DNA from: a bacterium
GTDB taxonomy: Bacteria > Oederibacteriota > CAKKQC01
DNA length: 64,000 nucleotides
Assembly: GCA_919901855.1 (NCBI GenBank)
Contig: CAKKQC010000032.1
Coordinates: 1-64,000, forward strand
Direction of reading: 5' to 3'
The notes under the pieces were generated by a model, which was not told the DNA's origin, did not search any database, and saw only the letters and a list, made by a program, of their open reading frames with translations. This document shows positions 39,501-63,788 of the stretch, piece by piece; positions within the stretch are counted from its first letter, which is position 1; each line of letters opens with the position of its first letter. The position numbers were made by a program, and so were the translations under genes.

Positions 39501-41669
39501 GGGCCCCTGGCGCTGGCGCCCGGCGCGGTCGCGACCTTCGTGTGGACGTACTCGTCCGCGGGAGCCGGGACGGTGGCCCTGAGTCTGACCGCGACGGGGA
39601 CCGACGCCGGGACGGGCGTGCCGGTCTGGACGACGAAGTCCGTGGTCGGCGTGGTGCAGACGCCGGCCTCGATCGCTGCCGCGGTGGCCGTGCTGCCCGC
39701 CTCCGTGGGCGAGGGCCAGGCCTTCCTCGTCACGGTGACCGTGACCAACTCGGGTCAGGCCCCCGCGATCGGCGTCGCGCCGTCACCCCCGGGTGCCTCG
39801 GGCTCGGGAACGGCATCCCTCGCGGGAGGCCCGTGGCCGGCCGCGCCCGTGTCGGTCCCCGGCGGGACGTCGGTCGTCTTCACGTGGACCTGCACAGCGG
39901 GGACGGCGGGGACCCTTGGGTTCACGGCGACTGTCGCGGGGTCGGACGCGAACTCCGGGGCCGTCTTGACCACGGGGCCGGCCGTCTCGGCGCCCGTGAC
40001 CGTGAACCCGGCGGCGACGCTGGTCTCCGCGGGCTCGGTCTCGCCGGCCGCCGTCAGCGCCGGCCAGTGGATCACGGTCACGCTGACGGTCACGAACGTG
40101 GGCGGAGTCGCCGCGTCCGCGGTGACCCCCGGGCTCGTGAACTCCTCGACGGCGCCGATGACCGCGGTTTCGGGGCCCGTGCCCGCCGGACCGCTCGGCC
40201 TGGCCGCGGGCGCGGCGGCCACCTTCGTCTGGACCTTCTCCACGAACGGGGCGGGGTCGGTGGCGTTCGGACTGACGGCCACCGGCACGGACAGCGGTAG
40301 CGGCGCGCCGCTCTTCACGGCCGCGGCGCTGTCCTTCCCCGGCGCCGTCACGGCGCCGGCCGCGCTCGCGGCGCGGGCGGCCGTGATCCCGCCGCAGGTG
40401 AGCGTGGGGCAGGCCTTCCTGCTGACGGTGACCGTCACCAATACGGGCTCTACGTCGGCGACCGGCGTGGTCCCGGCCGGGCCATCGGCATCGGGCCCCG
40501 GCGGCGCGACGGTCGCCGGCGGGCCGCTTCCGGCCGGCCCGGTCACGATCGCCGGCGGTGCCGCGATCACGTTCACTTGGACGATGACGGCCTCGTCGGC
40601 TGGGACGCTCGCGCTCACGGCGACGGCGGCTGGGGCAGACGCGAGTTCGGGGCTCCCAGTGACGGGCGGGCCCGCGGCGGCGTCGGTTCTGGTCCAGACT
40701 CCGGCGGCGCTCTCGGCCGGGCTCTCGGCCTCGGCGACCACGGTTCGTTTCGGCGAGCCCCTGGTGCTCACGCTGACAATCTCGAACTCGGGCTCGGCAG
40801 CCGCAACGGGCGTGCCTCTGCCCGACGCCCGGGCGTGGGGAACCGCCGGGGGTATGGTCACTGGCTGGCCGTTCGGGGGGTTCCCGGCGACGGTGACGGG
40901 CGGGGGAACGCTGTCGTTCACTTGGACGGTGACGATGGCCTTCCCCGCGACCGTCGGCTGGTGTCTGACCGTGACCGGGGTTGACGCCAACACCTGGGGG
41001 CCGCTCTCCGTGGTCGCGGCCACCTCTGTCCCCATCACGGTCTTCGGCAACCCCGATGCGTATGTGGCCGCGGTGACGGCCTCGCCAGCGTCCGTCAACA
41101 TCGGGGACACGATTACGGTCGTCGTGACCGTGGTGAATCCCGGGCTCTTCGTGGCGACGCTGGTTAATGCCTACGTGGCCGTTGGCGGGCCAGGACAGGC
41201 GGAGCTGATCGCGTCGCTCTCGCCGTCGGCCGATATCACGGGTGCAGGTGGGTCCGCGACCTTCACGTTCACCTACCGGGCTACGGCACCAGGAAGCGTG
41301 ACCTTCACGGGTGGCGCCACGTACATCGGCGCGTCGGGGCCGATCGCGACGATGCCCTCCTCGGCGGTCACGATCCTGGCCGGGGTGACGGCGGGCGAGA
41401 ACCCCAAGGACGTCGTCGTGGGCCCGCACCCGTTCACGCCGGCGCGGGGCGGGACGATGACCTTCAGCCGGATTCCCGCGGGATCGACGGTCCGGGTCTT
41501 CACGATCGCGGGTGAGCCTGTCGCGACGGTCCGTTCCGACGGGCTCGGCACGGCGGCCTGGAACGGGCGCAACGACGCCGGGTCCGTGGTCCTGCCGGCC
41601 GTGTACCTGTTCGTCGTGGAGTCGCCGGACGGCCGCCGTCACACGGGCAAGCTCCAGGTGGACCGCTGA
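27597..41669 (+). CDS. 4690-residue secreted repeat protein (DUF11 and CARDB-like repeats, FlgD-like C-terminus)
   Basis: A single uninterrupted 14-kb gene. Residues 1-36 form a signal peptide. Residues about 37-580 hold two or more lectin/Ig-like sandwich domains (AGWTRLVAARTG and AGWTLVASNTTG-type repeats). Residues about 580-1390 are DUF11-type repeats (QGDTVTYIIAVTNPAGNG, LSDTLPAGV). From about 1390 to 4560 some two dozen roughly 115-residue CARDB-like repeats follow, each with a core like VSVGQSFLVTVTVTNTG and VTFTWT. The last 90 residues are a FlgD-like domain (VGPHPFTPARGGTMTFS, WNGRNDAGSVVLPAVYLFVV) that probably attaches or exports the protein. It should be a very long extracellular fibre or adhesin. 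The composition is almost free of charge and rich in Ala, Gly, Thr and Val. It overlaps the next gene by 4 bp or less. Confidence 0.88.
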   Translation: MKVSGFHLRGANRVFRGRLAAVLAVFACLTPVVGFSAVATVGLPTNATSGNSKTLSINPAGLVGGNILVARILISGVATAPVGPNASWTLRTTSSSVAGNCVLTTWTHTVTAGEVGPYVWTIATNQDWAGGITQYSGVDLFCPVGATGTSNGTSVTTGKRSTFALPEITTQVPNAVVDGSYGVAVKNKTFTQPAGWTRLVAARTGARPPSAGSANRAQAAVGLTGAANTVSVNVTANPYVADLIELDPPDTTGVTLAPAALSFATVKGSSPASQTFTITNTHLKNVCPNQTYAAAVTYSAGWDATNMPAPNVSAVSLAQGATSAAITISIASSLLDTGTYTAVIAITDASGNTAAINVTLSVACSIQREANVATAAAGAATALALTDPGGWSDGDGLVATLVADTTTAPATPAGWTLVASNTTGALGMWMYRAARSGDATTTWTGFASGRLAGVMAAYLNVNNFTPLDAPAFPFAPATTLSGDGNVDTNACTTGTANVDVVAAYAINMTNAGTALTVGAGLTSISGNVSTGAAVGDIVLNVGSDRIVAGAGTPLAETGTVLPSQAASKLGGLCTLRPANVPPAVSVTRLPAAPSQGDTVTYIIAVTNPAGNGPFTDLMLSDTLPAGVTFVSLGVDAAGAGLTLSSNPGAGAVEGAYGTLTTPLAAGSAVTFTLQGVLDCGVVAAQSSTAFARTGGTCGTPGTVLNAFTPGVVAAPAVTVSRDLIAPTQGDLVTYSVVVTNASATAPLNALVFSDSLPAGLSVVSFAADGAGAGLALATAGQVVGASGDFATPVGPGNSVTFTVVARVGCGPGVLVPQSNQAYAQTASNCLRTLSAADTFTPGPVAAPDVTLGHVPAAPAEGGPVTYMIVVRNMGTMSLNSLVVSDTLPAGVSFVSLEAGSDGSGDGLVLSANAGAGAVEGASGVFTPGLELAAGASFTLTLTGTVVCGASGAQSHQAYAETPGGCQKTLSATDAFNLATVGVSVVKTQVVPAAGATIAAGDLVRYRIVVTNTGAVTVTSVLLVDTLAPQVVNVTTTATGFALPAVVSGAGGTVYAWTGAGLTMGPNLSYTFTVTGQAGVTCAATVIGNTAYVSAGTACAAGILSSSAASGTFTLSPPALAVQVQKTMAGGTWPGQAVSYSVIVTNAGSATITNLVIVDTVSPVVVGAVAGTPAGWASPVVTSVASGTLFAWTGSGLTFYPGTTTTFTISGSIGVVCAATQVSNTGFAIAASACSTTVLVTNAVGVLVPAPTIGMSVAKVLLTSPAQRGDPVGYRIVVTNTGTSTVVSLTVVDTLAPQVVAVTTTATGFALPAVADSTSGAGTVYAWSGTGLAMGPGASFTFTITGQLGFSIAPVTVGNTVFVGVADACGAAAGTAASGTFTTATAAVLAASVAAYTSPLCAGDPTLVTVTVTNTGGATALSVGAPDFTLGGTGSAIKAAGPNPAGPVTLAGGASATFTWTYTGGTSGSSEFTTTVAGQDQNSGLALTTGPVTSNAILVRTPGALAVAAAAPAFVSVGQWFAVTLTVTNTGETVVSALTPAIAIGPGAALVTAEPPAPGGTSLAGGASTTFVWTYSAAGSGLVAFTASAAGTTCAATNLVAAVTVSTTLQTPAALVAAAAALPTTVGVGQTFLLTVTVTNTGAAPATGVAPAPPVVAGAGVASFLAGPSPAGPVSLAGGASIVFTWTYSGSSSGVVDLTTTVTGTDVNTVVALSTGAVVAGPVTIVPSGTLVSRETVSALPVSVGQWIRVTFTVTNEGGVAASAVTPGLVNASTAVLALISGPVPAGPLTLAAGGATTFVWTFSASGAGSLALSLTATGTDGGTGDPLYTFQSQFVPVAVQTPAALAAAVAMLPAQVSVGQSFLVTVTVTNTGQAGATGVTPAGPAVGGAGTATVAAGPTPGAPVPVAGGASVTFTWTMTASAAGSVGFTTTVTGADANAGWALTTGPRTAAGLIQTAAALTASLHAFPSPRDTGQAFLVTLTVTNSGAAAATGVDASAILLEGTGGATAVGGPTPAMPVTIPGGTSMVFTWTYSGTAAGTVRFTTTVTAADGNAGWAVTTGPVMSGAVVIETPAALAAAVAMLPAQVSVGQGFLVTVTVTNSGMAGATSVAPAMLAASGTGAVVLVDGPFPSIPVPLAGGGAVTFTWTMTASSAGSMVLTSTVTGTDANTAAALTTGPKTASGVIQTVAALTASLEAFPSPRNTGQGFLLTLTVTNSGQAAATGVDSSAFLLEGTGGAAVVGGPTPAMPVTIPGGTSMVFTWTYAGSADGTVRFTTTVTAVDGNAGWAVTTGPVMSGVVVIETPAALAAAVAMLPAQVSVGQSFLVTVTVTNSGGAMATGVTAAPLLETGAGVTVSGGPWPAGPASLGAGVAVTFTWTFTAASAGTALFTATATGTDANTAAALSSGPASVSGVIQTAASLSAALAAFPSPRNTGQGFLVTLTITNTGQASALGVDASGFLLEGTGGATVVGGPTPVLPATIPGGASMVFTWTYSGATAGTVRFTTTVAGTDANSAAAVTTGPVMSGAVVIETPAALAAAVAMLPAQVSVGQGFLVTVTVTNSGGATAAGVAAAPLLETGAGVTPVGGPWPAGPVSLGTGTAVTFTWTFTAASAGTALFTATATGTDANTAAALSSGPASVSGVIQTAASLSAALAAFPSPRNTGQGFLVTLTITNTGQASALGVDASGFLLEGTGGATVVGGPTPVLPATIPGGASMVFTWTYSGATAGTVRFTTTVAGTDANSAAALTTGSVMSGVVVVQTPAAVQAALAALPSTVGVGQDFLVTLTVTNTGGTTATGVSAPEPVVAGTGVASFLAGPLPAMPVTLVGGASVTFTWTFSGASSGLVDLTTTVTGTDANTAAAVSTGPVVVGPVTIVPSGTLVSRVTVTVLPVSVGQWITVALTVTNDGGVPANAVIPGVVNASTAALALVSGPVPAGPVTLGPGAAQVFVWTFSASGAGSLALSLTTTGTDGGTGDPLYTFQSVFVPVAVQTPATLAASVAMLPPQLSVGQPFLVTVTVTNTGQAGATGVAPAGPEVAGPGAATVVAGPTPASPMPLAGGASVTFTWTMTASAAGIVGFTATVTGADGNAGWALTTGPVTAAGTIQTAAALTASLDAFPTPRNVAQGFLVTLTVANSGGAAATGVNASAFLLEGTGAASVSAGPNPALPVTISGGATRVFTWTLTGSTAGTVWATTTVSGADANSGVVLTAGPAWSGVVVVQAPAALAASAAALPATVGVGQAMFLTVTVTNTGQATATGVAPAAPVAGGTGALSAVAGPFPAGSVTIAGGAMVVFTWTYDGASVGSVGLTTTVTGTDANTAAALTTGPVTVAPITVVPAGSLLPAVSVSPMPVSVGQQIRVALTVTNTGGTAANNVTPALVDGSAAALTLLSGPVPPGPVTLASGAGTTFVWTFSAAGAGAVALSLTATGTDGGSGDPLYTAMDVAGLVQTPAALAASAAAYAGSVCGPFLVTLTVTNTGQATAVGVNALGPVDYFDAGSPLPIGPSTPAMPVALAGGAAVTFTWTHVGGVPGTYILTSTAFGTDQNDGSARSSGPAVAGTVTVQNSGALVASSSAPVTVSFGQEIAVRLTVTNAGGSNVTGISATVYVNPGSASIAAVSWPLNSLMLPAGSATTFEWRYAAISSGTVSFTMTAAGLTCGAVPMVVSRTVTATVQIPAALGAAVAMLPAQVSVGQAFLVTVTVTNTGGATATGVTAAPLLETGAGVTPVGGPWPAGPVTLGGAASVTFTWTFSAASAGTAIFTATATGTDANTAAALTSGPVSVSGLVQMPAALDIAAVLFPASVGQGQALWLTVTVTNIGQAAATVVVPATPAVWGSGSVVAGAGPWPAAPVTVAGGSAVTFTWTYVGGAVGSAGLTTTVTGLDGNADWVLASGPISAGPVTVTPAADLVSATATSPLPVSVGQWITVAFTVTNEGGTAANGVTPGLANASTAVLTLVTGPVPAGPLALAPGAVATFVWTYSSAGAGTVALSLTATGTDAGTGVPVWTTKSVVGVVQTPASIAAAVAVLPASVGEGQAFLVTVTVTNSGQAPAIGVAPSPPGASGSGTASLAGGPWPAAPVSVPGGTSVVFTWTCTAGTAGTLGFTATVAGSDANSGAVLTTGPAVSAPVTVNPAATLVSAGSVSPAAVSAGQWITVTLTVTNVGGVAASAVTPGLVNSSTAPMTAVSGPVPAGPLGLAAGAAATFVWTFSTNGAGSVAFGLTATGTDSGSGAPLFTAAALSFPGAVTAPAALAARAAVIPPQVSVGQAFLLTVTVTNTGSTSATGVVPAGPSASGPGGATVAGGPLPAGPVTIAGGAAITFTWTMTASSAGTLALTATAAGADASSGLPVTGGPAAASVLVQTPAALSAGLSASATTVRFGEPLVLTLTISNSGSAAATGVPLPDARAWGTAGGMVTGWPFGGFPATVTGGGTLSFTWTVTMAFPATVGWCLTVTGVDANTWGPLSVVAATSVPITVFGNPDAYVAAVTASPASVNIGDTITVVVTVVNPGLFVATLVNAYVAVGGPGQAELIASLSPSADITGAGGSATFTFTYRATAPGSVTFTGGATYIGASGPIATMPSSAVTILAGVTAGENPKDVVVGPHPFTPARGGTMTFSRIPAGSTVRVFTIAGEPVATVRSDGLGTAAWNGRNDAGSVVLPAVYLFVVESPDGRRHTGKLQVDR
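34716..35143 (+). repeat. 428-bp perfect direct repeat inside the giant gene, copy 1
   Basis: Identical base for base to 35406-35833, with an offset of exactly 690 bp (230 codons, two protein repeats). Neighbouring repeat units differ at many third positions, so this pair is a recent in-frame duplication or a gene-conversion event. Confidence 0.9.
35406..35833 (+). repeat. 428-bp perfect direct repeat inside the giant gene, copy 2
   Basis: The downstream member of the pair described at 34716. Sequence diverges at once on both sides of the identical block. Confidence 0.9.
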
Positions 41670-47880: not shown

Positions 47881-48620
47881 ACAGCCGCATGACTCTGCTC
47901 GTCTCCGCGATCGCGGGCGTGCTGGCCGCGGTCTTCGCGTACGCCTGGTTCTCTTCGGCCGAGCGGTCGTTGCGCGAGATGTCGTCGCCCGCCCCGGTCC
48001 TGGTCGCCTCCCGGTACATCGCCAGCGGCGCCCGCGTGGACGCGTCCGCGGTCGAGGTGAAGGCCTTCCCGCGGGCGTTCATCCAGCCCGGAGCGCTGGC
48101 GGCCGTGAAGGACGCCGAAGGCCAGCTCGCGCTGGCGCCGATCGCGGCGAGAGAACAACTCCTGGCGAACAAGCTCACGAAGGGCGGCGTCGCCCTCGCC
48201 CTCGCCGTGCCGCCCGGCAGGCGCGCGGTTACGGTGGCCGTGGATGCCGCGTCCGGGGTCGCGGGCCTGCTCAAGCCGGGCGACCTCGTGGACGTGGTGG
48301 TCACCGCCGACGAGGGCGGAGCCCCCAGGACGTCCGTCCTCATGCAGGCGGCGCCCGTCCTCGCGGTCGGGAAGACGTTCTCGGTCGAGCCGTCGCGGAA
48401 GGAGGAGGAGGGGTCGCTCCTCGGCGCGCAAGCGGACACGGTGACGCTCGCGGCCTCGCCGTTCGAAGCGACCCAGCTGGTGCATTTCGAGCTCGCGGGG
48501 CGCATCAAGCTGCTACTGCGCTCTCCGGGCGACGTCCAGCGGATTCCGCTGGCGCCCATATCGGGCCGGTCGGTCCGGGCCGCCCCGGCGGGAGACGACG
48601 AGGAGGTGAGGAAGCGATGA
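47877..48620 (+). CDS. cpaB: Flp pilus assembly protein CpaB/RcpC
   Basis: A 247-residue protein with an N-terminal membrane anchor (MTLLVSAIAGVLAAVFAYAW). A SAF domain follows (LVASRYIASGARVDASAVEV), then the RcpC/CpaB core (AVTVAVDAASGVAGLLKPGD, LVDVVVTADEGG). CpaB is a periplasmic protein thought to stabilise the outer-membrane secretin of the Tad pilus. It overlaps the secretin start by 4 bp, the canonical cpaB-cpaC order. Confidence 0.9.
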   Translation: MNSRMTLLVSAIAGVLAAVFAYAWFSSAERSLREMSSPAPVLVASRYIASGARVDASAVEVKAFPRAFIQPGALAAVKDAEGQLALAPIAAREQLLANKLTKGGVALALAVPPGRRAVTVAVDAASGVAGLLKPGDLVDVVVTADEGGAPRTSVLMQAAPVLAVGKTFSVEPSRKEEEGSLLGAQADTVTLAASPFEATQLVHFELAGRIKLLLRSPGDVQRIPLAPISGRSVRAAPAGDDEEVRKR

Positions 48621-49069
48621 GCATGTTCACGGTCGGACTCGCGGTGGTGTTGGCGGCGCTCCGGGGGCTTCCGGCCGCCGCGGAATCGCCGCCCGGCGGC
48701 GACCTGATCCAGGTGGATGTCCAGGTCCTGGAGATCAACAAGTCGAAACTCTACAAGGTCGGGCTCGACTGGGCGCGCCTGCTCGAGGGCGGGGCGGCGG
48801 GGGCCGCGTCCGCGGCCGCGGGAGGTCCGGTGAGTCCCGCCGAACTGGTCGAGGACGCTCCGCCGCCGCTCCGCAAGCTGGGGACGTTCTCGCGCGGGCA
48901 GGTCGACGCGTTCATGCGCCTGCTCGAGGGTAACAACTACGGGAGGCTGCTCGCCAAGCCCAAGCTGCTGACTGTGAGCGGCTCGCCCGCGACCTTCCTC
49001 GTCGGCGGCGAGATTCCCGTCGTCTCGCAGGACACGCAGGGCCATGGATGCGTGTCCTATCTGTCATGA
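48617..49069 (+). pseudogene. cpaC: secretin gene cpaC/rcpA, interrupted after its first part
   Basis: The reading frame starts with a signal peptide and secretin N-domain-like sequence (LIQVDVQVLEINKSKLYKVG). It reaches the secretin core hallmark LLAKPKLLTVSGSPATFLVG and GGEIPVVSQDTQGH, then ends 8 codons later at a stop. A normal secretin of this type would run for several hundred more residues through the membrane-gate region. The break coincides with the sharp GC drop and a serine recombinase gene. The gene has been split by integration. The missing 3' part should lie at the far end of the element. Confidence 0.88.
49029..49058. other. candidate attachment-site junction (attL or attR half)
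   Basis: AGGACACGCA (49029-49038) and its perfect reverse complement TGCGTGTCCT (49049-49058) flank a 10-base centre. The left arm is secretin coding sequence and the right arm is element sequence, so the dyad centre (49043/49044) marks the likely crossover. Serine-integrase sites are imperfect inverted repeats around a central dinucleotide, so this fits. In frame, VSY follows the junction, as secretins often have there, so the true boundary could lie up to about 49060. Confidence 0.65.
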
Positions 49070-49078
49070 TCTTTCTCC

Positions 49079-50530
49079 TTATGTGACAGTCTTCCCTGGC
49101 AGGTAGTTCAACTCAAACGTGATTCCGTCCTTCTCAACAACTATCTGTTCAACGATGGCCTCTGCAATCTGTCGCTTTTCCTCCGAGGTCAGTTCCGGCC
49201 ACCGACCATAGAGGTCCCGGGCTTCGTTGAGAATCTGGTCGCTGGACTGGAACCTGACACGGAGAAAGTCAATCTCACCTTGCAGACTGGGCATTTCGTT
49301 CCTGATCTGCCGATACCGCTCATCCATCGGCTTGTACCTTTCCCCGAATCCTTCCTTTGGGAGCTGCCCATCCATGTAGAGGCTGACCAACTTGTCCATA
49401 CCAGCCTTAACCTTTGCGCTCTCACTCTCAAGGTTATCCAGCAGCTCTTCCTTCTCTTTCAGTTGCTGGTCGGCCTGGGTCAGATGCTCAGCGACTTCCT
49501 CCTTGCAGAGAACGAAATCCCGTATCTTGGTGTGAAAGACACTATCCAAGTCTTGAATGGTGATCTTGTTCCGACAACCAGACCGGAAGCAGACATACTT
49601 CGGTGTGTTCGAAGGAACATACATCTTGCTTCCGCAATGGCACACTACCAGCCCAGTGAATACATGCACAGGCTTCCGGCCAGGCCTTCTACCGCTCTCT
49701 CGTCGCCCACTCAGAAGCGCGTTGCACTGGCTCCAAACATCGACGCTGACAATCGGATCCACTTCCGTCAGAATCCATTCCTCGGGGGGCTTGTCTTCCC
49801 AGCCATCAGGCTTGGAGTAGTTGGCGCGGCGGAGTCCTTTCGCCGAAGGATCCTTGATAAGCCGCTCAACCGTGGTCGAGCTCCAGGCGGCTCGGTTCCT
49901 CGTGCGGTGCCCTTGCTCATTGAGCAGTCTGGCAACGGTCTTGAGACGACCGTGCTGCAGGAAGAGCTCGTAGATGAGTCTTCGAACCGGAGCTTCTGCA
50001 GGATTGACTACTAGCTTCTTGTCCTTCCACATGTACCCATAGGGCCCCTTGCCACCAAGGGGTTTTCCCATCTTGGCCCTGACCACAACGGAAGCTGCGA
50101 CCCGTGAAGCGATCTCTTCCCGTTCCCATTGAGCCAGGGCCGCAATCATGGTGTAGAAGAGGCGTCCGGCAGGCGTCGATGTGTCGATGGATTCCTGAAG
50201 AGAGACGAGATCGGCACCGTACTTCTTGAAGAGGTCCGCGAAATCAAGGAGTTCCCGAGTGTTTCGAGCAAGGCGAGCGAGTTTGGAGAAGATCAGTCCG
50301 GTGATGTGGCCACGTTCAATATCCTTGATCATCCGCTGAGCTTCCGGATGCGCCATCACGGACTTCCCACTCACGGCCTCAAGGTGATAGACCTCTTGCA
50401 CCTTCCACTGCTTGAACTCCGCATAGTACCGAGCTCGTTTCTCGTGGTGCTCGGGACTATCCCCTCGGGCCTGGTCTTCGGTAGAGACCCGAATCCAGAT
50501 GCCTACTGCCTTCGGAACCTCTGTACCAAT
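49079..50530 (-). CDS. large serine recombinase (integrase)
   Basis: A resolvase/invertase-type large serine recombinase. The catalytic Ser is in IWIRVSTEDQ. The conserved ISKLARLARNTRELLDFADL and QWEREEIASRVAASV follow, then the recombinase domain (PYGYMWKDKKLVVNPAEAPV), a Cys4 zinc ribbon (VCHCGSKMY...CFRSGC) and a long coiled coil before the C-terminus. The first in-frame ATG (50401) lies after the catalytic Ser and cannot be the real start. Upstream the frame is open back to 50536 with no ATG, GTG or TTG. An ATT at 50530 has AAGGAG 7 bases before it and gives 483 residues with Ser16. Otherwise a one-base frameshift near the start must be assumed. Next to the junction, it is the likely integrase. 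Confidence 0.88.
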   Translation of the reverse strand: MGTEVPKAVGIWIRVSTEDQARGDSPEHHEKRARYYAEFKQWKVQEVYHLEAVSGKSVMAHPEAQRMIKDIERGHITGLIFSKLARLARNTRELLDFADLFKKYGADLVSLQESIDTSTPAGRLFYTMIAALAQWEREEIASRVAASVVVRAKMGKPLGGKGPYGYMWKDKKLVVNPAEAPVRRLIYELFLQHGRLKTVARLLNEQGHRTRNRAAWSSTTVERLIKDPSAKGLRRANYSKPDGWEDKPPEEWILTEVDPIVSVDVWSQCNALLSGRRESGRRPGRKPVHVFTGLVVCHCGSKMYVPSNTPKYVCFRSGCRNKITIQDLDSVFHTKIRDFVLCKEEVAEHLTQADQQLKEKEELLDNLESESAKVKAGMDKLVSLYMDGQLPKEGFGERYKPMDERYRQIRNEMPSLQGEIDFLRVRFQSSDQILNEARDLYGRWPELTSEEKRQIAEAIVEQIVVEKDGITFELNYLPGKTVT

Positions 50531-51473: not shown

Positions 51474-52724
51474 TCAGTCAGAAGCAGGGAGGATGCCAGG
51501 AAGAAACTTGATGTAAAGATCCTCCGTGCGGAGACCAGCGATCGACAATGTTTCCCGCGTCTTGCTGTGTGCGATTAAGCCGCTGCCATTGACAGCAACC
51601 CACTTGCCACGAAACTCCTCACTAAGCCTGGGATAGTGATTCATCAAGTACGAGCGGCCCCTAAGAAAAGAACTGCTCTTCTTCGCACACCACGTTGCTT
51701 CTGCATCTTTAGGTGGAGTGGATTCCGCGGTCTTTCCCTCAAGAGAACTCTCTGTGCCCCTCCTCCGAATCAGATCCAGAGTCGATTCTGCATCATTGAA
51801 TCTGCTATCTAGCACATTCATGACTCTCATTCCGTTCTCTCGTTCCTCGGCAGTTTCCCTTCGTGGACGTCCATAGTCGAATAGAACCAACGATGCAATG
51901 TCAGCATCTGGAAACAGCATCTTCAAGTGCTGTTGAACGAATGAAATCACTCGACGCGACCCAAGCAGATCATAGAGCAAGAGCAGTCGCCTTGGTGGCC
52001 TCCCGGGGGGCTGCTCAATTGTGTTGTTCCTGCTCTCATCTACGAAGAAGTGATCCACGTTCCAAGACTTAAGAAGGTCCTCCCTGATTTGGATTGGTCC
52101 CACGCTTCCCGAATGCTTCCTGAAGAAACAGAGCGCATCCGGCCCGTAGGCTGAAATCTTATGAGCGAAGCTATCAACAAGCCACTTTCGAGAATCGTGA
52201 TCAACGAACCAATGGTTCCACGTCAGGAGCATCGGGTGCTCGAGGGAATCTGCAACAACAAACGCATTACCCTCCTCTGCAATCGCACAGTGGCATATCG
52301 TTGAACGACCATTGTTCTCTCGAAACACCCAGTGCTTTTTGTCAGCGTGAACGAGGTCTTGCGCCGTGAGCCGATATCTCAAGAAGATTCCACTAATGTC
52401 GAAAAGACTCGCGTAATCCCGTCGATGAAGGTAGGTGTTCAGTACCGACGTGATCTCATCAAGACACGCGCGGAGTTGCTTGATTGGGACCTCATACTTC
52501 TCCTGGAGTGTCCTTCTTGCTCGATCCACTTCCGACCAGAGCACAGAGCAGAACTTCGTATCAAGGTCTGGGCCCGACCTCTCTTGTTCATAGGACGATC
52601 TTGGGTTCCACTCATTCGTGAACTGCCAAAGGTACTCTCTCCGGCGTGACCGCTCGCGCCTAAGATCTACACAAAGGCTCTCAAGCACTTTTCCCGGAGG
52701 CTGCGTTCCCTCTTCTGATGCCAT
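51474..52724 (-). CDS. unknown protein with DUF5678-like C-terminus
   Basis: A 416-residue soluble protein. The last 50 residues (FRGKWVAVNGSGLIAHSKT, then IAGLRTEDLYIKFLP) match the pattern of DUF5678, a short strand-rich domain of unknown function. The middle (WLVDSFAHKISAYGPDALCF, then RRLLLLYDLLGSRRVISFV) vaguely follows the order of a phosphoribosyltransferase fold, but the PRPP-binding acidic pair and TG are not conserved. The N-terminal 130 residues are helical. A possible extended -10 (TGGTATACT) lies about 65 bp upstream. I cannot assign a function. It forms a two-gene unit with the 180-residue protein. Confidence 0.6.
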   Translation of the reverse strand: MASEEGTQPPGKVLESLCVDLRRERSRRREYLWQFTNEWNPRSSYEQERSGPDLDTKFCSVLWSEVDRARRTLQEKYEVPIKQLRACLDEITSVLNTYLHRRDYASLFDISGIFLRYRLTAQDLVHADKKHWVFRENNGRSTICHCAIAEEGNAFVVADSLEHPMLLTWNHWFVDHDSRKWLVDSFAHKISAYGPDALCFFRKHSGSVGPIQIREDLLKSWNVDHFFVDESRNNTIEQPPGRPPRRLLLLYDLLGSRRVISFVQQHLKMLFPDADIASLVLFDYGRPRRETAEERENGMRVMNVLDSRFNDAESTLDLIRRRGTESSLEGKTAESTPPKDAEATWCAKKSSSFLRGRSYLMNHYPRLSEEFRGKWVAVNGSGLIAHSKTRETLSIAGLRTEDLYIKFLPGILPASD

Positions 52725-53943: not shown

Positions 53944-55212
53944 ATGGCCAATGATATACATGCGTATGATCACCAACTGGAAATGCTGGTGAGTCGAATC
54001 AAGACTTCTGAGCTGTCCGAGGAGAACAAGAAACTGCTCCTCGACTATGACCGATCGATGCTCCTTGTGGAAGGGCTCGGAAAGCCGAGGCGTCTCCGTC
54101 TCTTGAGCCTCATCTTCCTGACAACGACGACCTACTTCCGAAAAGAGCTTCGGACCGTAACTGTTGACGACATCAAGGACTGCCTGAGAGCCATCGAGGA
54201 TCGAAAGGTCTCTCCATGGACAGTCTCGCTCTACAAGGTTTCCATCAAGAAGTTCTTCAGGTGGCTCACCTATGGAGACATGGTCAGCCAAACCACAGAG
54301 GTTCCTCCGCTCGTCAGCTGGATCAAGATTCATGTCAAGAAGAAGAACCAGCCGAGAGTGCAAGCCTCAGCAATCCTTACCGAGGACGAGGTCCACAGGC
54401 TCATCGCTGCTGCCCAGCTTCCTCGTGACCGCGCCTTCGTCTCGATGCTGTATGAACTGGGAGCGAGAATCGGAGAGATAGGTGGCCTTAGGATAGGGGA
54501 CATCTCGCGGGACGACTACACGTTTCTCATCGACATATCAGGAAAGACAGGACACCGCACTCCCCGTATCGTCATGTCAGATCCCTATCTTGCAGAGTGG
54601 CTGAACCATCACCCTCTCAAGAATGACCCATCAGCCCCCCTCTGGCCTTGCGTGGATCGCAGGGGCGGGTTCAAGCCCATGGACTATGGCGCGTTCCATG
54701 CCCTCGTCTTGCGTCTCAAGCAGAAAGCCGACATCACGAAGCGCCTCTATCCCCATCTCTTTAGGCACACCAGAGTCACTCATGTCCTGGCGAAGCGCCT
54801 CATGAACGAGGCCCAGGCCAAGGTCTATTTCGGATGGACCCCTGACAGCAAGATGCTATCGGACTACGCGCATCTTGTTTCCCAGGATGTCAACGAGGCG
54901 ATCCTCGAGATGCATGGCATCAAGATGGCGAAGAACAGCGAGAAGGAGATCGCAAGAACTTGCCCTCGGTGCCACCGCATAAACACTCCCGAAGCGAAGT
55001 TCTGCGTCCAGTGCAGTTTCATTCTTGATCCGACCGTAGCGTTTCAGCAGGGCCTACAGCGTTCGAGAACCGACCAGCTCCTCACGACGCTTCTTGAGGA
55101 CAAACGCATCCAGCAGCTCGTATTGGAGAAGCTCATGGAGCTGGACCGAGCCAAACTCCAGGAACTCCTCGGAGATGCCAAGGGGGACACAAGTGGGCTA
55201 CAAGGGATATAA
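53944..55212 (+). CDS. tyrosine recombinase (integrase) with C-terminal zinc ribbon
   Basis: A 422-residue phage-integrase/XerD-like enzyme. The N-terminal SAM-like DNA-binding domain spans about residues 15-120. The catalytic core has Arg175 (YELGARIGEIGGLR), Lys201 (ISGKTGHRTPR), His271-x-x-Arg274 (HLFRHTRVTH), Trp298 in the second His position (YFGWTPDS) and the nucleophile Tyr308 (LSDYAHL). All are present, so it should be active. A Cys4 zinc ribbon follows (Cys340, 343, 354, 357), then a coiled coil. Integrases with this CPxCxxxN...FCxxC tail are, to my knowledge, mainly archaeal. It is inside the element, not at the visible end. Confidence 0.9.
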   Translation: MANDIHAYDHQLEMLVSRIKTSELSEENKKLLLDYDRSMLLVEGLGKPRRLRLLSLIFLTTTTYFRKELRTVTVDDIKDCLRAIEDRKVSPWTVSLYKVSIKKFFRWLTYGDMVSQTTEVPPLVSWIKIHVKKKNQPRVQASAILTEDEVHRLIAAAQLPRDRAFVSMLYELGARIGEIGGLRIGDISRDDYTFLIDISGKTGHRTPRIVMSDPYLAEWLNHHPLKNDPSAPLWPCVDRRGGFKPMDYGAFHALVLRLKQKADITKRLYPHLFRHTRVTHVLAKRLMNEAQAKVYFGWTPDSKMLSDYAHLVSQDVNEAILEMHGIKMAKNSEKEIARTCPRCHRINTPEAKFCVQCSFILDPTVAFQQGLQRSRTDQLLTTLLEDKRIQQLVLEKLMELDRAKLQELLGDAKGDTSGLQGI

Positions 55213-55213
55213 A
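55207..55213 (+). promoter_or_regulatory. TATA-like box upstream of the membrane/coiled-coil gene
   Basis: ATATAAA, 22 bases before the ATG at 55236 and overlapping the last codons of the integrase. No Shine-Dalgarno sequence precedes that ATG, and no -35 is visible. This is consistent with leaderless transcription. Confidence 0.45.
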
Positions 55214-55235
55214 CCCAGTCATCTGCAGTAACTGC

Positions 55236-56360
55236 ATGGTGTTTCAGACATTCCTGTCCTACAACGCGTTCGACTCGCTCAAGTATCTCGACCTTTCCGG
55301 CATCTACGCGCAGTACTCCTCGCTCATCGACCTTACGCTCTACTTCATTATCTTTCTCGGGCTCTCCAAGTTCGTGTTCGATAAGAGGTTCCCAGGCAGG
55401 GGAGGGAAGGCCATCACAATCGGAGTCGGCGCAGTGCTGGCAGTTAGCCTTGCTGTCGCTGAGGGCCGCCTTGGGTTCAACCTCCAATCTTTCAGTCCCA
55501 TCGCCGGGCTCATCGTGATTCTCGCTGTTGGCTTCGTTCTCTATGCGCTCTGGCGCGGAATGGGTACGCCGGTCTGGATCTCAATCCTCATCTCCCTCGT
55601 AGTCATGTATTTCGGAGTGGGCTCTGTAACTCCTGCTTTCCTCGTCTGGGTTGGCGCCCACATCCCGCTGCTATATGTCGCCGTCGTTCTCGCTATCGTC
55701 GTCCTTGTCATTGCAGGACTCTTCTCCCTCATGGACCACATTGAGGGGAGCAAGCTCAGTCACTATTTGGACCCCGCCCCTGGATGGGAGAGAGACCCCC
55801 GAGCGAAGCAAGACGTCCTCAGGGAGGAGGAATCTATGCTTGCCCTCGAACAACGGGTAGGCGGAGAAGTAGCCCACGGCCTCAAGGAATCCTATTTGCA
55901 GCTCGCAAGGCATGGAGCAAAGCCCGTTCTTGCAGAGAGGATCCAATCAGCAGTAATAGATGCCCAAGACAAAGAGCACCTGCTCATGCAGAAGCTGGAC
56001 TATTTAGACACGGTCAACAAGAAACTGAAGGCGTTTGACCTAGGCCTCTTCCACAATCTCACGCGGGAGTACACCCGCCTTACAGCAGCACAACAACCGA
56101 AGATGCGCAAATTCATCGAGCGGGAACGGTCAAGGTTCTTCGAAGAAGCAGACATCGAAGATCTTGCTTCCAAGGCGAAGGCGGCTCTTGCCGAATATCA
56201 AGCCACGCTCCAGAGAGCAGCTGACGAGCTTCACAAGAACAATGCCCCCAAGGCCACCGAATGGCTCAAGAGAGCTGTCGATCTTGAGGAAGTCGTCAAC
56301 CGCATGCTCCGAAAGCTCCAGGGCAGGGAGCACCAGCTCCGCAAGCTCATCAAGGCATAA
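55236..56360 (+). CDS. polytopic membrane protein with C-terminal coiled coil, unknown function
   Basis: A 374-residue protein I do not recognise. The first 170 residues contain five or six hydrophobic helices, for example LTLYFIIFLGLSKFVF, AITIGVGAVLAVSLAVA, AGLIVILAVGFVLYALW, VWISILISLVVMYFGVG and VAVVLAIVVLVIAGLFSL. After about residue 185 it is charged and helical, with coiled-coil stretches (ESYLQLARHGAKPVLAERIQ, MRKFIERERSRFFEEADIE). It resembles membrane-anchored scaffold proteins of mobile elements. It is followed 28 bp later by a small gene with a very strong ribosome-binding site. Confidence 0.7.
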   Translation: MVFQTFLSYNAFDSLKYLDLSGIYAQYSSLIDLTLYFIIFLGLSKFVFDKRFPGRGGKAITIGVGAVLAVSLAVAEGRLGFNLQSFSPIAGLIVILAVGFVLYALWRGMGTPVWISILISLVVMYFGVGSVTPAFLVWVGAHIPLLYVAVVLAIVVLVIAGLFSLMDHIEGSKLSHYLDPAPGWERDPRAKQDVLREEESMLALEQRVGGEVAHGLKESYLQLARHGAKPVLAERIQSAVIDAQDKEHLLMQKLDYLDTVNKKLKAFDLGLFHNLTREYTRLTAAQQPKMRKFIERERSRFFEEADIEDLASKAKAALAEYQATLQRAADELHKNNAPKATEWLKRAVDLEEVVNRMLRKLQGREHQLRKLIKA

Positions 56361-56388
56361 TCACAACAACCAAAGGAGGTGAATAACA

Positions 56389-56664
56389 ATGGACAAACCA
56401 GTAGCATCTTTCAGAGCCGGCCTCATGCAGGCGGCAGTCTTCGTAAACACACGAAAGACCAAGAATGGGGAAGTTAAGATCCCCTCAGCGAGTTTCTCGA
56501 AGAGGTATCTCGAAGACGGGGAGTGGAAATCTACAACCACCCTCGACAAGAACGACATTCCGAAGGCAATACTCGTTTTGACGAAGGCCTACGACTACAT
56601 CACGACTACCTACCACGCTGACCGCAGCGAGGAGCCAGAGGAGTCAGACGCCGAGGCAGCCTAG
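56389..56664 (+). CDS. small strand-rich protein of a family common on mobile elements
   Basis: A 91-residue protein. The pattern FRAGLMQAAVFVNTRKTKNG, FSKRYLEDGEWKSTTTLDKN and DIPKAILVLTKAYDYI is one I have seen in many short proteins from plasmids and uncultivated genomes: a beta-rich N-terminus then one helix. The shape suggests single-strand nucleic-acid binding, but no function is established. The tail is acidic (EEPEESDAEAA). The AAAGGAGGTGA ribosome-binding site 9 bp before the ATG is a perfect anti-SD match, implying high expression. Confidence 0.65.
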   Translation: MDKPVASFRAGLMQAAVFVNTRKTKNGEVKIPSASFSKRYLEDGEWKSTTTLDKNDIPKAILVLTKAYDYITTTYHADRSEEPEESDAEAA

Positions 56665-57467: not shown

Positions 57468-59633
57468 CTAACTCAGTTGCTTGACGTCCCGGTACAGCTT
57501 CCGCAGGTGTTCATCAGACATGTCTAGAATCGGCTCGTACATGAAGGCGTTCAAGTGAATGTTCTCCGGCGTCATCAGCATTACCCGCTCTATCACGTCG
57601 ATGGCTTCCTGTTTGGAGGCGGTCCTTTCCCTGAACAACTTGAACAACTCGTATGTCTGCTTGCTTGAAATAGCCTCGACTGCCGCAGGATCCGCGATCT
57701 TGCCGATCATGTATCTCTCCGCCGTCAGCCTGATGGCGATCGACAGAACGACCTTGTTCTCTAGATTCGGGGTATCGGCAGCCTGCAAGCAGGCATCGGC
57801 TTCACCGAAGATTACTTCGACCATCGGCTTTGTGCCATCGAGACAACTGCCGGCTTGGCCGAACACCGTCCGAAAAACATTCGCCAAGTCATCCTGTGTT
57901 ATCGTTCCGGAGTCCCCCTTCCAGTGCAAGAGCGATGTCAGCTTCTTGTACTCGGGGTCGTTCTCGCCCTTTGTGTACTCCACGATGTTCCGAATGAACG
58001 GAATCGACGCCACTCTCTTTCTCGCATCAGTGAAGAAGTGCGGCTTCCAACCCTCAACGAAGATGTTCCGTATGCCCTCGGCTCTGTTAATGCTGAGTCC
58101 ACTATCCGTCTTTGACGCCATCAAGCACTGCGAGTACTTAACGAACCGGCTTTGGATGGTTCGGAAGAAGTCGAAGTTGTGTGTGAGAATCACCTGGTAG
58201 AAGTGCGGGTCTTCAGCCATTTCCTTGAGATACTCCACAATGGCGTACTTGTTCTTGTAGTCGAAAGAATCCGCGATGTCATCAACAATGAACAGCGTTT
58301 CCTGGTTCGCCTGTCTTCTTGCCTCGACCTCGAAGATGATGTTCAGAATATAGAGAGCCTTCTTCTCGCCCGTGCTCAGCACCCGCATGAGCTCGTCCCT
58401 CTCAAGCGTGGCGGATTCTGACCCATCTTCAAACCTGAACCCCAAGCTGAGAAGGGGCTCCTGCGCCAGGATCACAGCTACACGATTCTGCGGAACGAGC
58501 CTGAACGGAACATGGAATCGGCCATTGAACAGCTCAATGACTCTCTCCCACTGTGTCCGTTCCTTTGCCGCCTCGGCTTCGATTTCCACCTTCCGCTTCT
58601 CGGCCGCGTGTAACTTCGCGACGAGGTCGTTGTACAAATCAATCTTCAGGAAGAAATAGGACCTCCAGAGTTCCTCTCGAAACGCCTCGACATTGGCAAG
58701 GGCAGGGATTATCTTCTCGTTCTCAGACAGATAGTTGCTGAAATCACGAACGGTCGCATTCTTGGTGATCTGCTTGTCAATCGCCGCAAATCTCTTCCTC
58801 AACTCTGCGCTCTTGAGAATCTGGTTCTTCTCGTCCTCAATCACTTTCTCCAGCTCAACCTGGCTTGAGATCTCCTTCTTAGTCGGGGCATTCAGTGTCA
58901 CGGAATGCTTCGCTTCAAAGAAGCCGTTGTCGGCGAGCTGTTTGGCAATAGTGGCCGCGTTGTAGAAGTTGAAGACACCCTTCTTGAAGTATGTGGATGC
59001 GGCGAGAAGTTCGTTGTATTTCTCGATGTATTCCTTTATGGCCGTCCTAACGTCGCCGGTCTTAAGGAAGGCCTGGATCCTGTCATCGAAGATCTCGTCA
59101 TATCCGATGCCCGAGTAGGGCGCAGACTTCTGATCTCTCATCTCCTTCTCAACCCTGAAGATGGCTTTGTCGAATTCCCTATCGCTTTTGGTGAAGGCTG
59201 AAGATATCTCCTTCTCGATGTCCCTCTTCGAACCAGACACTTCCTTCATGGCGTTCAGGAAAACCTTCTTGGCTGCTTCGATTCCTGCGTGCAACTCTTC
59301 GTATTCTTTTCTCAATGGGGCGTTCACAAGCAGAGTCGACGTCTTCTCCGTGTGACCGAGCACCTCGTCATAAGGTCTGACAACGAAGACCCGCTCCTTG
59401 GGGAGCTCAGTTCCGGATTCGTCAGTAATCACTCTGGTGCAGGTTCGTCCTGGAAAGACTCGATCTTTCGACGGCACCGCTTGCGTCAGGTCAAAGAAGG
59501 TGTTTGCCAGCGAGCTCTTCATCGAACCGTTCGCGGCGTAGATCGCAACGACGTTGTGAGTGGAGAAGTCGAACTCGTATTTCAGTTTCCTGATGCCGTA
59601 GCAGTTCTGCAGATCAATCTTCAAGGTCTTCAT
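57468..59633 (-). CDS. ABC/SMC-type AAA ATPase, probable defence protein
   Basis: A 721-residue ATPase of the AAA_13/RloC-PrrC-like type. Walker A is a variant, YAANGSMKSSLANTF (Lys39), in which Met replaces the usual Gly before Lys. A central coiled-coil region spans about residues 105-360. The ABC signature is LSTGEKKALYIL (419-430), Walker B LFIVDDIADSFD (Asp451-Asp452) and the switch His THNFDFF (485). The C-terminal 230 residues are helical and unassigned. No HEPN or anticodon-nuclease motif is obvious. Related ATPases occur in phage-defence islands. It is the last gene of a minus-strand cluster, after a 160-bp gap. Confidence 0.78.
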   Translation of the reverse strand: MKTLKIDLQNCYGIRKLKYEFDFSTHNVVAIYAANGSMKSSLANTFFDLTQAVPSKDRVFPGRTCTRVITDESGTELPKERVFVVRPYDEVLGHTEKTSTLLVNAPLRKEYEELHAGIEAAKKVFLNAMKEVSGSKRDIEKEISSAFTKSDREFDKAIFRVEKEMRDQKSAPYSGIGYDEIFDDRIQAFLKTGDVRTAIKEYIEKYNELLAASTYFKKGVFNFYNAATIAKQLADNGFFEAKHSVTLNAPTKKEISSQVELEKVIEDEKNQILKSAELRKRFAAIDKQITKNATVRDFSNYLSENEKIIPALANVEAFREELWRSYFFLKIDLYNDLVAKLHAAEKRKVEIEAEAAKERTQWERVIELFNGRFHVPFRLVPQNRVAVILAQEPLLSLGFRFEDGSESATLERDELMRVLSTGEKKALYILNIIFEVEARRQANQETLFIVDDIADSFDYKNKYAIVEYLKEMAEDPHFYQVILTHNFDFFRTIQSRFVKYSQCLMASKTDSGLSINRAEGIRNIFVEGWKPHFFTDARKRVASIPFIRNIVEYTKGENDPEYKKLTSLLHWKGDSGTITQDDLANVFRTVFGQAGSCLDGTKPMVEVIFGEADACLQAADTPNLENKVVLSIAIRLTAERYMIGKIADPAAVEAISSKQTYELFKLFRERTASKQEAIDVIERVMLMTPENIHLNAFMYEPILDMSDEHLRKLYRDVKQLS

Positions 59634-62375: not shown

Positions 62376-63788
62376 ATGCAGACGACGAGAAAGATCGCGT
62401 TCCTGGGACCTCAGGGAAGTTTCTCTCATGAGGCAGCGATCAGCGCATTTCCTCAGGACGGATTGCACATGAAAGATTCGCTCGAGGAGGTCTTCGATAC
62501 TGTTTACAACGGCAAAGCGGATTATGGCGTTATGCCTGTTGAGAACTCGGCCGAGGGGATCATCGGCGTCACATACCACCTTCTGGTAGGCCAAGGCGAG
62601 CGTCCCGAAGTCAAGATCTGTGGTGAACTCTATCATCCAGTCGTACTGAACCTCGCCACAATTGCCGAAACGAGCCTTGACAAGATTGCGTTCGTCCATA
62701 CCAAGCAAGAACCGTGGGGACAGTGTCGGGATTGGGTCTCGAGGAATCTCCCGCGGAACGTTCAGTTCATCGCTGAAGCTTCAACATCGAAGGCTGCGGA
62801 GCTAGTGAAGGAGAAGGGCGAGTTGACCAGGGCAGCAATCGTCAGCCCTCTTGCGGTGAAGCTATATGGCTTGCACCTGCTCGCCAAGGGGATACAAGAT
62901 GTCAGAGGGAATGCCACTCGTTTCCTCATCATCGGGAGAAAACTGCTTCGTAGGAGAAGGGCAATTCACAAAGTGACCTTTGGCATGGTCCTCATGGACA
63001 GAGTGGGCGCCATAACCGACGCATTCGGAATCTTGAAAGCCCAGCGCGCGAATGTGCGCGCGGTTAAGATCTTTCCGGTCCGGGCGCCGAGCATTGCAAC
63101 TTGGAAGGACTGGTTCTTCGTTGATATTGACTCGGCGCCTGACTTCACGGCAGTTAACATTGCGATGAGCAAGATGCGTGAAGAAAAGGATCTGATTCTC
63201 GTGCTCCGCGAATTAGGAAGGTATCCCAAGGCAGCAAGTGATGGAGATGCCATTCCTGAAAGATCGTCCCCTCCCAGTCTTCCTGAGGTGGGCGTAGATG
63301 GAGGATTAGCGATCGAGGACCTAGTCGCGGCCGGTGAGGGAAACTCTATTGAATTCAAGGCAACGCTTCGTTGGAATCGAAGAGAGAACAAGAAGGATGC
63401 GGAACTGGAGTTCTCAGTCGTCAAGACTATCGCTGGTTTCATGAATGCGAGAGGAGGTGTTCTGCTCATCGGTATTGACGACAAAGGGGCCCCTCTGGGC
63501 CTCGACGAAGATGTTAAGACATTGCACAAACAATCTAAGGACGGATTCGAGCTTCACGTGAGAGACCTGCTCCATTCGAGATTCGGTGGGGCAGTCAGTC
63601 ATCTCATCAATGTGAGATTCGAAAAGGTCCAAGACAAAGATGTGTGCTTGATCAAGGTCAACCCCAGTCCCATTCCGGCCTGGGTCGAACGAGAAGGAAG
63701 GAATGAATTCTTTGTTCGAAGCGGCAATCAGACGAGGCTCCTCGATAGCAAGGACGCAGCAGAGTACGTAAGGTTCAGATGGGGCTAG
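62376..63788 (+). CDS. prephenate dehydratase-ACT protein fused to a Schlafen AlbA_2 domain
   Basis: A 470-residue three-part protein. Residues 4-186 are a prephenate dehydratase domain (KIAFLGPQGSFSHEAAI, DYGVMPVENSAEGIIG, and the catalytic Thr181-Arg182-Phe183 in RGNATRFLIIG). Residues about 200-285 are an ACT-like domain. The phenylalanine-binding motifs are altered: GAI replaces GAL at 211, and FPVRAP stands where ESRP is expected. Residues about 317-465 are an AlbA_2/Schlafen-type domain (EGNSIEFKATLRWNRRENKK, FMNARGGVLLIGIDDKG), a putative nucleic-acid-binding fold of conflict systems. I do not know this fusion. It could be an enzyme, a ligand-sensing regulator or a defence sensor. Confidence 0.88.
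   Translation: MQTTRKIAFLGPQGSFSHEAAISAFPQDGLHMKDSLEEVFDTVYNGKADYGVMPVENSAEGIIGVTYHLLVGQGERPEVKICGELYHPVVLNLATIAETSLDKIAFVHTKQEPWGQCRDWVSRNLPRNVQFIAEASTSKAAELVKEKGELTRAAIVSPLAVKLYGLHLLAKGIQDVRGNATRFLIIGRKLLRRRRAIHKVTFGMVLMDRVGAITDAFGILKAQRANVRAVKIFPVRAPSIATWKDWFFVDIDSAPDFTAVNIAMSKMREEKDLILVLRELGRYPKAASDGDAIPERSSPPSLPEVGVDGGLAIEDLVAAGEGNSIEFKATLRWNRRENKKDAELEFSVVKTIAGFMNARGGVLLIGIDDKGAPLGLDEDVKTLHKQSKDGFELHVRDLLHSRFGGAVSHLINVRFEKVQDKDVCLIKVNPSPIPAWVEREGRNEFFVRSGNQTRLLDSKDAAEYVRFRWG

What the first reader, a model, noticed from the sequence alone, without database searches (positions are those of the whole stretch)
62376..63788. Prephenate dehydratase-ACT fused to a Schlafen AlbA_2 domain
A phenylalanine biosynthesis enzyme joined to a nucleic-acid-binding domain of conflict systems, on a mobile element and away from other aromatic genes. 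It could couple aromatic amino-acid status, or a phage-induced change in it, to DNA or RNA binding.
Basis: partly seen in the sequence, partly recalled or inferred. Interest (0 to 1): 0.85.

Follow-up and report, generated by a model that had tools for sequence, protein, structure and literature searches.

The report
Phenylalanine-enzyme fold fused to Schlafen nuclease
A gene on a mobile island joins a degenerate copy of a phenylalanine-making enzyme to a nuclease-like domain of the Schlafen family, most likely a one-off small-molecule sensor wired to an RNA-cutting defence domain; no second example was found.

Summary
In detail: 62376-63788(+) is one open 470-aa frame with a prephenate dehydratase (PDT) domain (Pfam 2e-52), an ACT fold, a 26-residue linker and a SLFN_AlbA_2 domain (1.4e-17). 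It lies in a ~53% G+C island in a ~70% G+C genome, behind a large serine recombinase that abuts a cut-off secretin gene. The host keeps a separate, normal chorismate mutase-PDT. The dehydratase TRF motif is kept, but the phenylalanine-binding ESRP of the ACT domain is KIFP, SHPQ is TKQE, and its branch is the longest in the PDT tree. The AlbA_2 domain keeps the Glu-Glu-Asp triad of Schlafen RNases (E321, E326, D369 = rat SLFN13 E205, E210, D248), nearly invariant in 72 relatives. This AlbA_2 subfamily is nearly always the C-terminal module behind varied N-termini: GmrSD nucleases, receiver domains, restriction enzymes, and solute-binding domains of PDT's own fold class. Best reading: a repurposed PDT-ACT ligand sensor controlling a Schlafen-type RNase, probably for phage defence (inferred). 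No second PDT-AlbA_2 fusion turned up in ~310 sampled genomes, a capped scan of 85,000 species, plasmids, phages or viral contigs. New variant of a known kind; activity untested.

The parts
62376..63788 (+). fusion gene, 470 aa, PDT-ACT-linker-AlbA_2
   Evidence: single open frame, ATG start; Pfam domains
62394..62942 (+). PDT domain, residues 7-189; keeps P54/E56/N57/S58, E84, Q116-C117-R118, N179 and T181-R182-F183; has TKQE where SHPQ is usual (109-112)
   Evidence: Pfam PF00800 2e-52; column counts against 44 PDTs
62985..63230 (+). ACT-type domain, about residues 204-285; GALV is GAIT, ESRP is KIFP (231-234)
   Evidence: weak Pfam match; structure match to PDT-ACT crystals; column counts
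63231..63308 (+). linker, residues 286-311, Pro/Ser/Asp-rich, low model confidence
63309..63785 (+). Schlafen AlbA_2 domain, residues 312-470; triad E321, E326, D369, basic K328
   Evidence: Pfam PF04326; invariance in 72 relatives; profile match to SLFN11/13/14; fold match to SAMD9 tRNase and SLFN13
48617..49069 (+). secretin fragment cut off where the low-G+C island begins
   Evidence: Pfam Secretin matched only at 2-40 of 169; sequence
49079..50401 (-). large serine recombinase at the left edge of the island
   Evidence: Pfam Resolvase 2.4e-25 and Recombinase 1.1e-18; PHROG integrase 1e-96
53944..55212 (+). tyrosine recombinase with C-terminal zinc ribbon
   Evidence: Pfam Phage_integrase 7e-17
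57468..59633 (-). SMC-like ATPase, phage-defence candidate PDC-S46
   Evidence: PADLOC PDC-S46 4.9e-275, residues 1-720 of 721

Best explanation
The protein is a single-chain sensor-effector. The N-terminal PDT-ACT unit, derived from a phenylalanine-biosynthesis enzyme but released from its old constraints, serves as a small-molecule sensor with a venus-flytrap fold; it probably binds prephenate, arogenate or a related carboxylate in the kept cleft, and no longer binds phenylalanine in the usual ACT site. The C-terminal AlbA_2 domain is the output: a Schlafen-type metal-dependent ribonuclease with tRNA as likeliest substrate. A ligand change, for instance during phage infection, would alter the PDT cleft or oligomer and free the nuclease to stop translation. 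Shown by sequence and model: both folds, the intact triad, the kept TRF, the lost ESRP, the island. Inferred: ligand sensing, RNase activity, the switch, and phage defence.
For: Domains and folds. Triad: E321 and E326 identical in 72/72 and D369 in 71/72 relatives, aligned with SLFN11/13/14; rat SLFN13 E205A and E210A abolish tRNA cleavage and D248 is the third residue (PMC5862951). SAMD9, whose AlbA_2 domain matches the model at Z 12.2 (rabbit) to 12.9 (human), is a tRNase (PMC12331169). The subfamily is a C-terminal module behind changing N-termini (GmrSD_N 10, receiver 7, restriction methylases, DUF499, solute-binding SBP_bac_3 2); PDT belongs to the same flytrap fold class (ModA, EvgS and LysR-effector-domain matches). 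Repurposing: longest branch of 42 PDTs (2.83 against a median of 0.12), ESRP and SHPQ lost, below the NCBIfam cut-off for PDT (152 of 219 bits), separate pheA in the host. Defence setting: PDC-S46 and recombinases on the same island. Prokaryotic Schlafen RNases are described as phage-sensing, tRNA-cleaving defence effectors (PMC12839542, citing a 2025 preprint not read here).
Against: Only one example, so no covariation or conserved context can be used. The PDT catalytic core (TRF, PVENS.EG, E84, QCR) is largely kept, so an active enzyme is not excluded; two of the six distant PDTs depart from as many consensus columns as the fusion (16 against 15), though at other sites. AlbA_2 domains are also known as plain nucleic-acid binders, and I know of no tested nuclease activity for this exact bacterial subfamily. 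No phage or infection link was shown for this gene, and it has no PADLOC match itself.
Confidence: 0.45

Rival explanations
1. Bifunctional metabolic protein: the PDT part is still an active, feedback-insensitive prephenate dehydratase carried as cargo, and AlbA_2 tethers it to nucleic acid or tunes it.
For: TRF, PVENS.EG, E84 and QCR kept; PDT-fold proteins with unusual roles exist (GqqA, 7alz/7am0, is titled a quorum-quenching acylase and is among the best fold matches).
Against: Host already has CM-PDT; SHPQ and ESRP lost; very long branch; no metabolic neighbours; the AlbA_2 subfamily keeps a nuclease triad.
Confidence: 0.2
2. Ligand-responsive nucleic-acid-binding regulator without nuclease activity.
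For: AlbA_2 domains are classed as DNA/RNA-binding; the SAMD9 domain was crystallised with DNA (7ksp).
Against: Triad complete and nearly invariant in the subfamily; attachment to restriction and GmrSD modules fits an effector.
Confidence: 0.2
3. Chance, recent or decaying gene fusion, or an assembly join, with no selected joint function.
For: No second fusion in any search; the linker has odd codon-position G+C, though only 26 codons.
Against: Intact frame, both folds intact, similar G+C on both sides, and the same C-terminal placement of AlbA_2 as in nearly all relatives.
Confidence: 0.15

Closest known systems
Prephenate dehydratase PheA (PF00800 with ACT)
   Same: whole PDT-ACT fold (Z 26-28 to 3mwb, 6vh5, 2qmx, 2qmw), TRF catalytic motif
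   Different: ESRP lost, SHPQ lost, no chorismate mutase part, extra C-terminal AlbA_2, scores under the NCBIfam PDT cut-offs
Animal Schlafen (SLFN11/13/14) and SAMD9/9L tRNase domains
   Same: AlbA_2 fold and Glu-Glu-Asp triad
   Different: sensor here is PDT-ACT; SLFN proteins carry two AlbA-like lobes (PMC5862951); activity not tested here
Bacterial C-terminal AlbA_2 proteins of the GmrSD-, receiver-, restriction- and SBP_bac_3-linked kinds (found here, e.g. L072, L104, L135)
   Same: same AlbA_2 subfamily (about 37-47% identity), same C-terminal placement; the SBP_bac_3 partner has the same fold class as PDT
   Different: N-terminal partner; the SBP_bac_3 forms look membrane-anchored whereas PDT-ACT is cytosolic (inference)

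Membership tests
Prephenate dehydratase (PF00800) | match over the curated family cut-off | tested here: met
   178 bits against 25.2
Prephenate dehydratase (PF00800) | TRF catalytic motif | tested here: met
   T181-R182-F183, identical in 44/44 PDTs; role of TRF from PMC10845154
Prephenate dehydratase, NCBIfam equivalogs | score over the naming cut-off | tested here: not met
   152 of 219 bits for NF008865, 141 of 359 and 109 of 577 for the others
Phe-feedback PDT (ACT regulatory site) | ESRP Phe-binding motif | tested here: not met
   KIFP at 231-234; E, S and R are each kept in 42 of 44 compared PDTs
Schlafen AlbA_2 (PF04326) | match over the curated cut-off and AlbA_2 fold | tested here: met
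   64.7 bits against 25.3; Z 14.2 to 3lmm, 12.2 to the SAMD9 tRNase domain 9o0d
Schlafen-type RNase | acidic triad E-E-D at the SLFN13 positions | tested here: met
   E321, E326, D369 align with rat SLFN13 E205, E210, D248
Schlafen-type RNase | RNA or tRNA cleavage | not testable with these tools
   needs purified protein
Phage-defence system | protection against phage | not testable with these tools
   only context: PDC-S46 about 2.7 kb away and recombinases; the fusion itself has no PADLOC match

The most novel reading that the evidence does not exclude
An aromatic-pathway metabolite sensor directly gates a tRNA nuclease, perhaps one specific for phenylalanine tRNA as the SAMD9 AlbA_2 domain is (PMC12331169), so that a disturbed aromatic amino-acid pool during infection shuts down Phe decoding.
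Probability: 0.06. Interest if true: 0.85.

Novelty: new variant of a known kind. Interest (0 to 1): 0.5.

Why it matters
It would be a case of a biosynthetic enzyme turned into the sensor of a Schlafen-type effector, linking amino-acid metabolism to RNA cleavage in one chain. It also shows that one bacterial AlbA_2 subfamily carries the full Schlafen nuclease triad behind many interchangeable N-termini, including flytrap ligand-binding domains, which makes it directly testable what those sensors detect.

Tried and rejected
Two genes or frameshift: rejected, one clean frame. Fusion as the host's only PheA: rejected, a CM-PDT is on contig C22. Second fusions: relatives, whole held phylum, plasmids, phages, viral contigs with the fusion and with the AlbA_2 alignment, genome contigs, other phyla: none. 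Longer matches in L081, L076 and L108 looked as if they might reach into an ACT domain: L081 and L108 begin with a receiver-like domain (L081 by profile, L108 by reading) and L076 has an N-terminus without an ACT-like sequence that I could see. Combined PDT+AlbA_2 alignments A1, A7, A8 and A11 were misaligned and not used for modelling; the two halves were modelled from A9 and A10, so relative domain orientation is unknown. Rfam and tRNA scans of the window: nothing. Literature holding both 'prephenate dehydratase' and 'Schlafen': none in the held library.

Full report
Observation. The frame 62376-63788(+) is a single 470-residue ORF. Pfam finds PDT at 7-189 (2e-52) and SLFN_AlbA_2 at 321-456 (1.4e-17); ACT is weak by sequence. 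Two AlphaFold2 models, one driven by 27 PDT relatives and one by 30 AlbA_2 relatives, give confident folds for most of 1-288 and for 312-470 respectively. The first matches PDT-ACT crystal structures over their whole length (3mwb Z 28.3, 6vh5 Z 28.1, 7am0 Z 27.6), so the ACT domain is present although degenerate. The second matches 3lmm (Z 14.2), human SAMD9 7ksp (12.9), rabbit SAMD9 tRNase 9o0d (12.2) and SLFN proteins (mostly about 9-10).

Setting. The window's first 48 kb have about 70% G+C, as has the stretch around the host's pheA; from 49 kb to the contig end at 74.6 kb it is mostly 50-60%. The change falls where a secretin gene is broken off (48617-49069, matching only the first 40 of 169 profile positions) next to a large serine recombinase (49079-50401). 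Contig C79 of the same genome starts inside the C-terminal half of a secretin, a plausible but unproven other half; the right end of the island is not seen. A tyrosine recombinase (53944-55212) and a 721-aa ATPase that matches the phage-defence candidate PDC-S46 end to end lie on the same stretch. Several small ORFs of unknown function lie between PDC-S46 and the fusion, on the other strand. No aromatic genes were seen near it.

The PDT part. Compared with 38 PDTs of relatives and 6 of distant bacteria, the fusion keeps the catalytic TRF motif, PVENS.EG, E84 and QCR, but replaces SHPQ by TKQE and the Phe-binding ESRP of ACT by KIFP. TRF is described as critical for substrate binding and catalysis, ESRP and GALV as ligand-binding motifs (PMC10845154). 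In a maximum-likelihood tree of 42 PDTs the fusion has the longest end branch, 2.83 against a median of 0.12, so its exact origin is unresolved. It fails the NCBIfam cut-offs for PDT. The host has a normal CM-PDT on contig C22 (the chorismate mutase part is my reading of its sequence). This fits a copy that left its biosynthetic job; it does not exclude residual enzyme activity.

The AlbA_2 part. E321, E326 and K328 are identical in 72 of 72 aligned sequences and D369 in 71 of 72. Aligned with SLFN13 they are E205, E210 and D248, of which E205A and E210A are fully inactive in tRNA cleavage (counting along the aligned SLFN13 sequence puts D248 at the second Asp of VDD, which is D369). The SAMD9/9L AlbA_2 domain has the same triad, and SAMD9's tRNase depletes tRNA-Phe (PMC11221667, PMC12331169). 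The subfamily members fetched from genomes carry it as a C-terminal module in nearly every case (one starts with it: L128), behind N-termini of very different length; Pfam names GmrSD_N (10 of 72), receiver domains (7), restriction methylases and type I/III subunits, DUF499, PH-like domains, and SBP_bac_3 (2). PDT and SBP_bac_3 share the flytrap fold class: the PDT model also matches ModA, the EvgS sensor domain and LysR effector domains, more weakly. Hence the simplest reading is that PDT-ACT is one more sensor in front of a standard output module.

Function. A 2026 survey says prokaryotic Schlafen-linked systems can sense phage signals and cleave tRNAs, citing a 2025 preprint (PMC12839542; the preprint itself was not available). 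By analogy the fusion would be a one-gene abortive-infection effector triggered by a small-molecule change. Sensing, cleavage, the switch and defence are all inferred here.

Rarity. No second PDT-AlbA_2 fusion was found in 98 relatives, which include many genomes outside the phylum, the 45 held genomes of the phylum (mostly the same ones), 195, 17, 3 and 2 genomes of four other phyla, plasmids, phages, viral contigs or genome contigs of 84,980 species. The architecture is therefore very rare or unique, which is the main reason for moderate rather than high interest.

Noticed in passing
window 57468-59633 (-): SMC-like ATPase matching phage-defence candidate PDC-S46 end to end (912.7 bits).
   Followed up: partly
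window 48617-50401; contig C79 (L140/L151): Large serine recombinase sits where a secretin gene is broken; another contig of the genome starts inside the C-terminal half of a secretin followed by an ATPase reading like CpaE (own reading), possibly the other side of the insertion.
   Followed up: partly
contig C24 (L150), compare window 53944-56662: A second, related element in the same genome: tyrosine recombinase 57% identical, followed by relatives of the 374-aa and ~90-aa genes in the same order.
   Followed up: partly
L092:362-1705, L135:338-1747: SBP_bac_3 solute-binding domain joined to AlbA_2, a probable membrane sensor with a Schlafen-type output.
   Followed up: partly
L104, L117; window 51474-52724 (-): Receiver-DUF5678-AlbA_2 proteins elsewhere; the island's own 416-aa protein has a DUF5678-like C-terminus just under the cut-off.
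   Followed up: no
L003:4716-5615 (beyond the window's right end, same contig): Pentapeptide repeats followed by a stretch that reads like a TIR-like nucleotide-binding domain (own reading, not tested).
   Followed up: no
window 27597-41669 (+): Very large ORF of 4690 aa in the high-G+C part.
   Followed up: no
L142 (Burkholderia arboris): A PDT with a degenerate ESRP region (DVRP) and a long branch, another candidate for a changed role.
   Followed up: no
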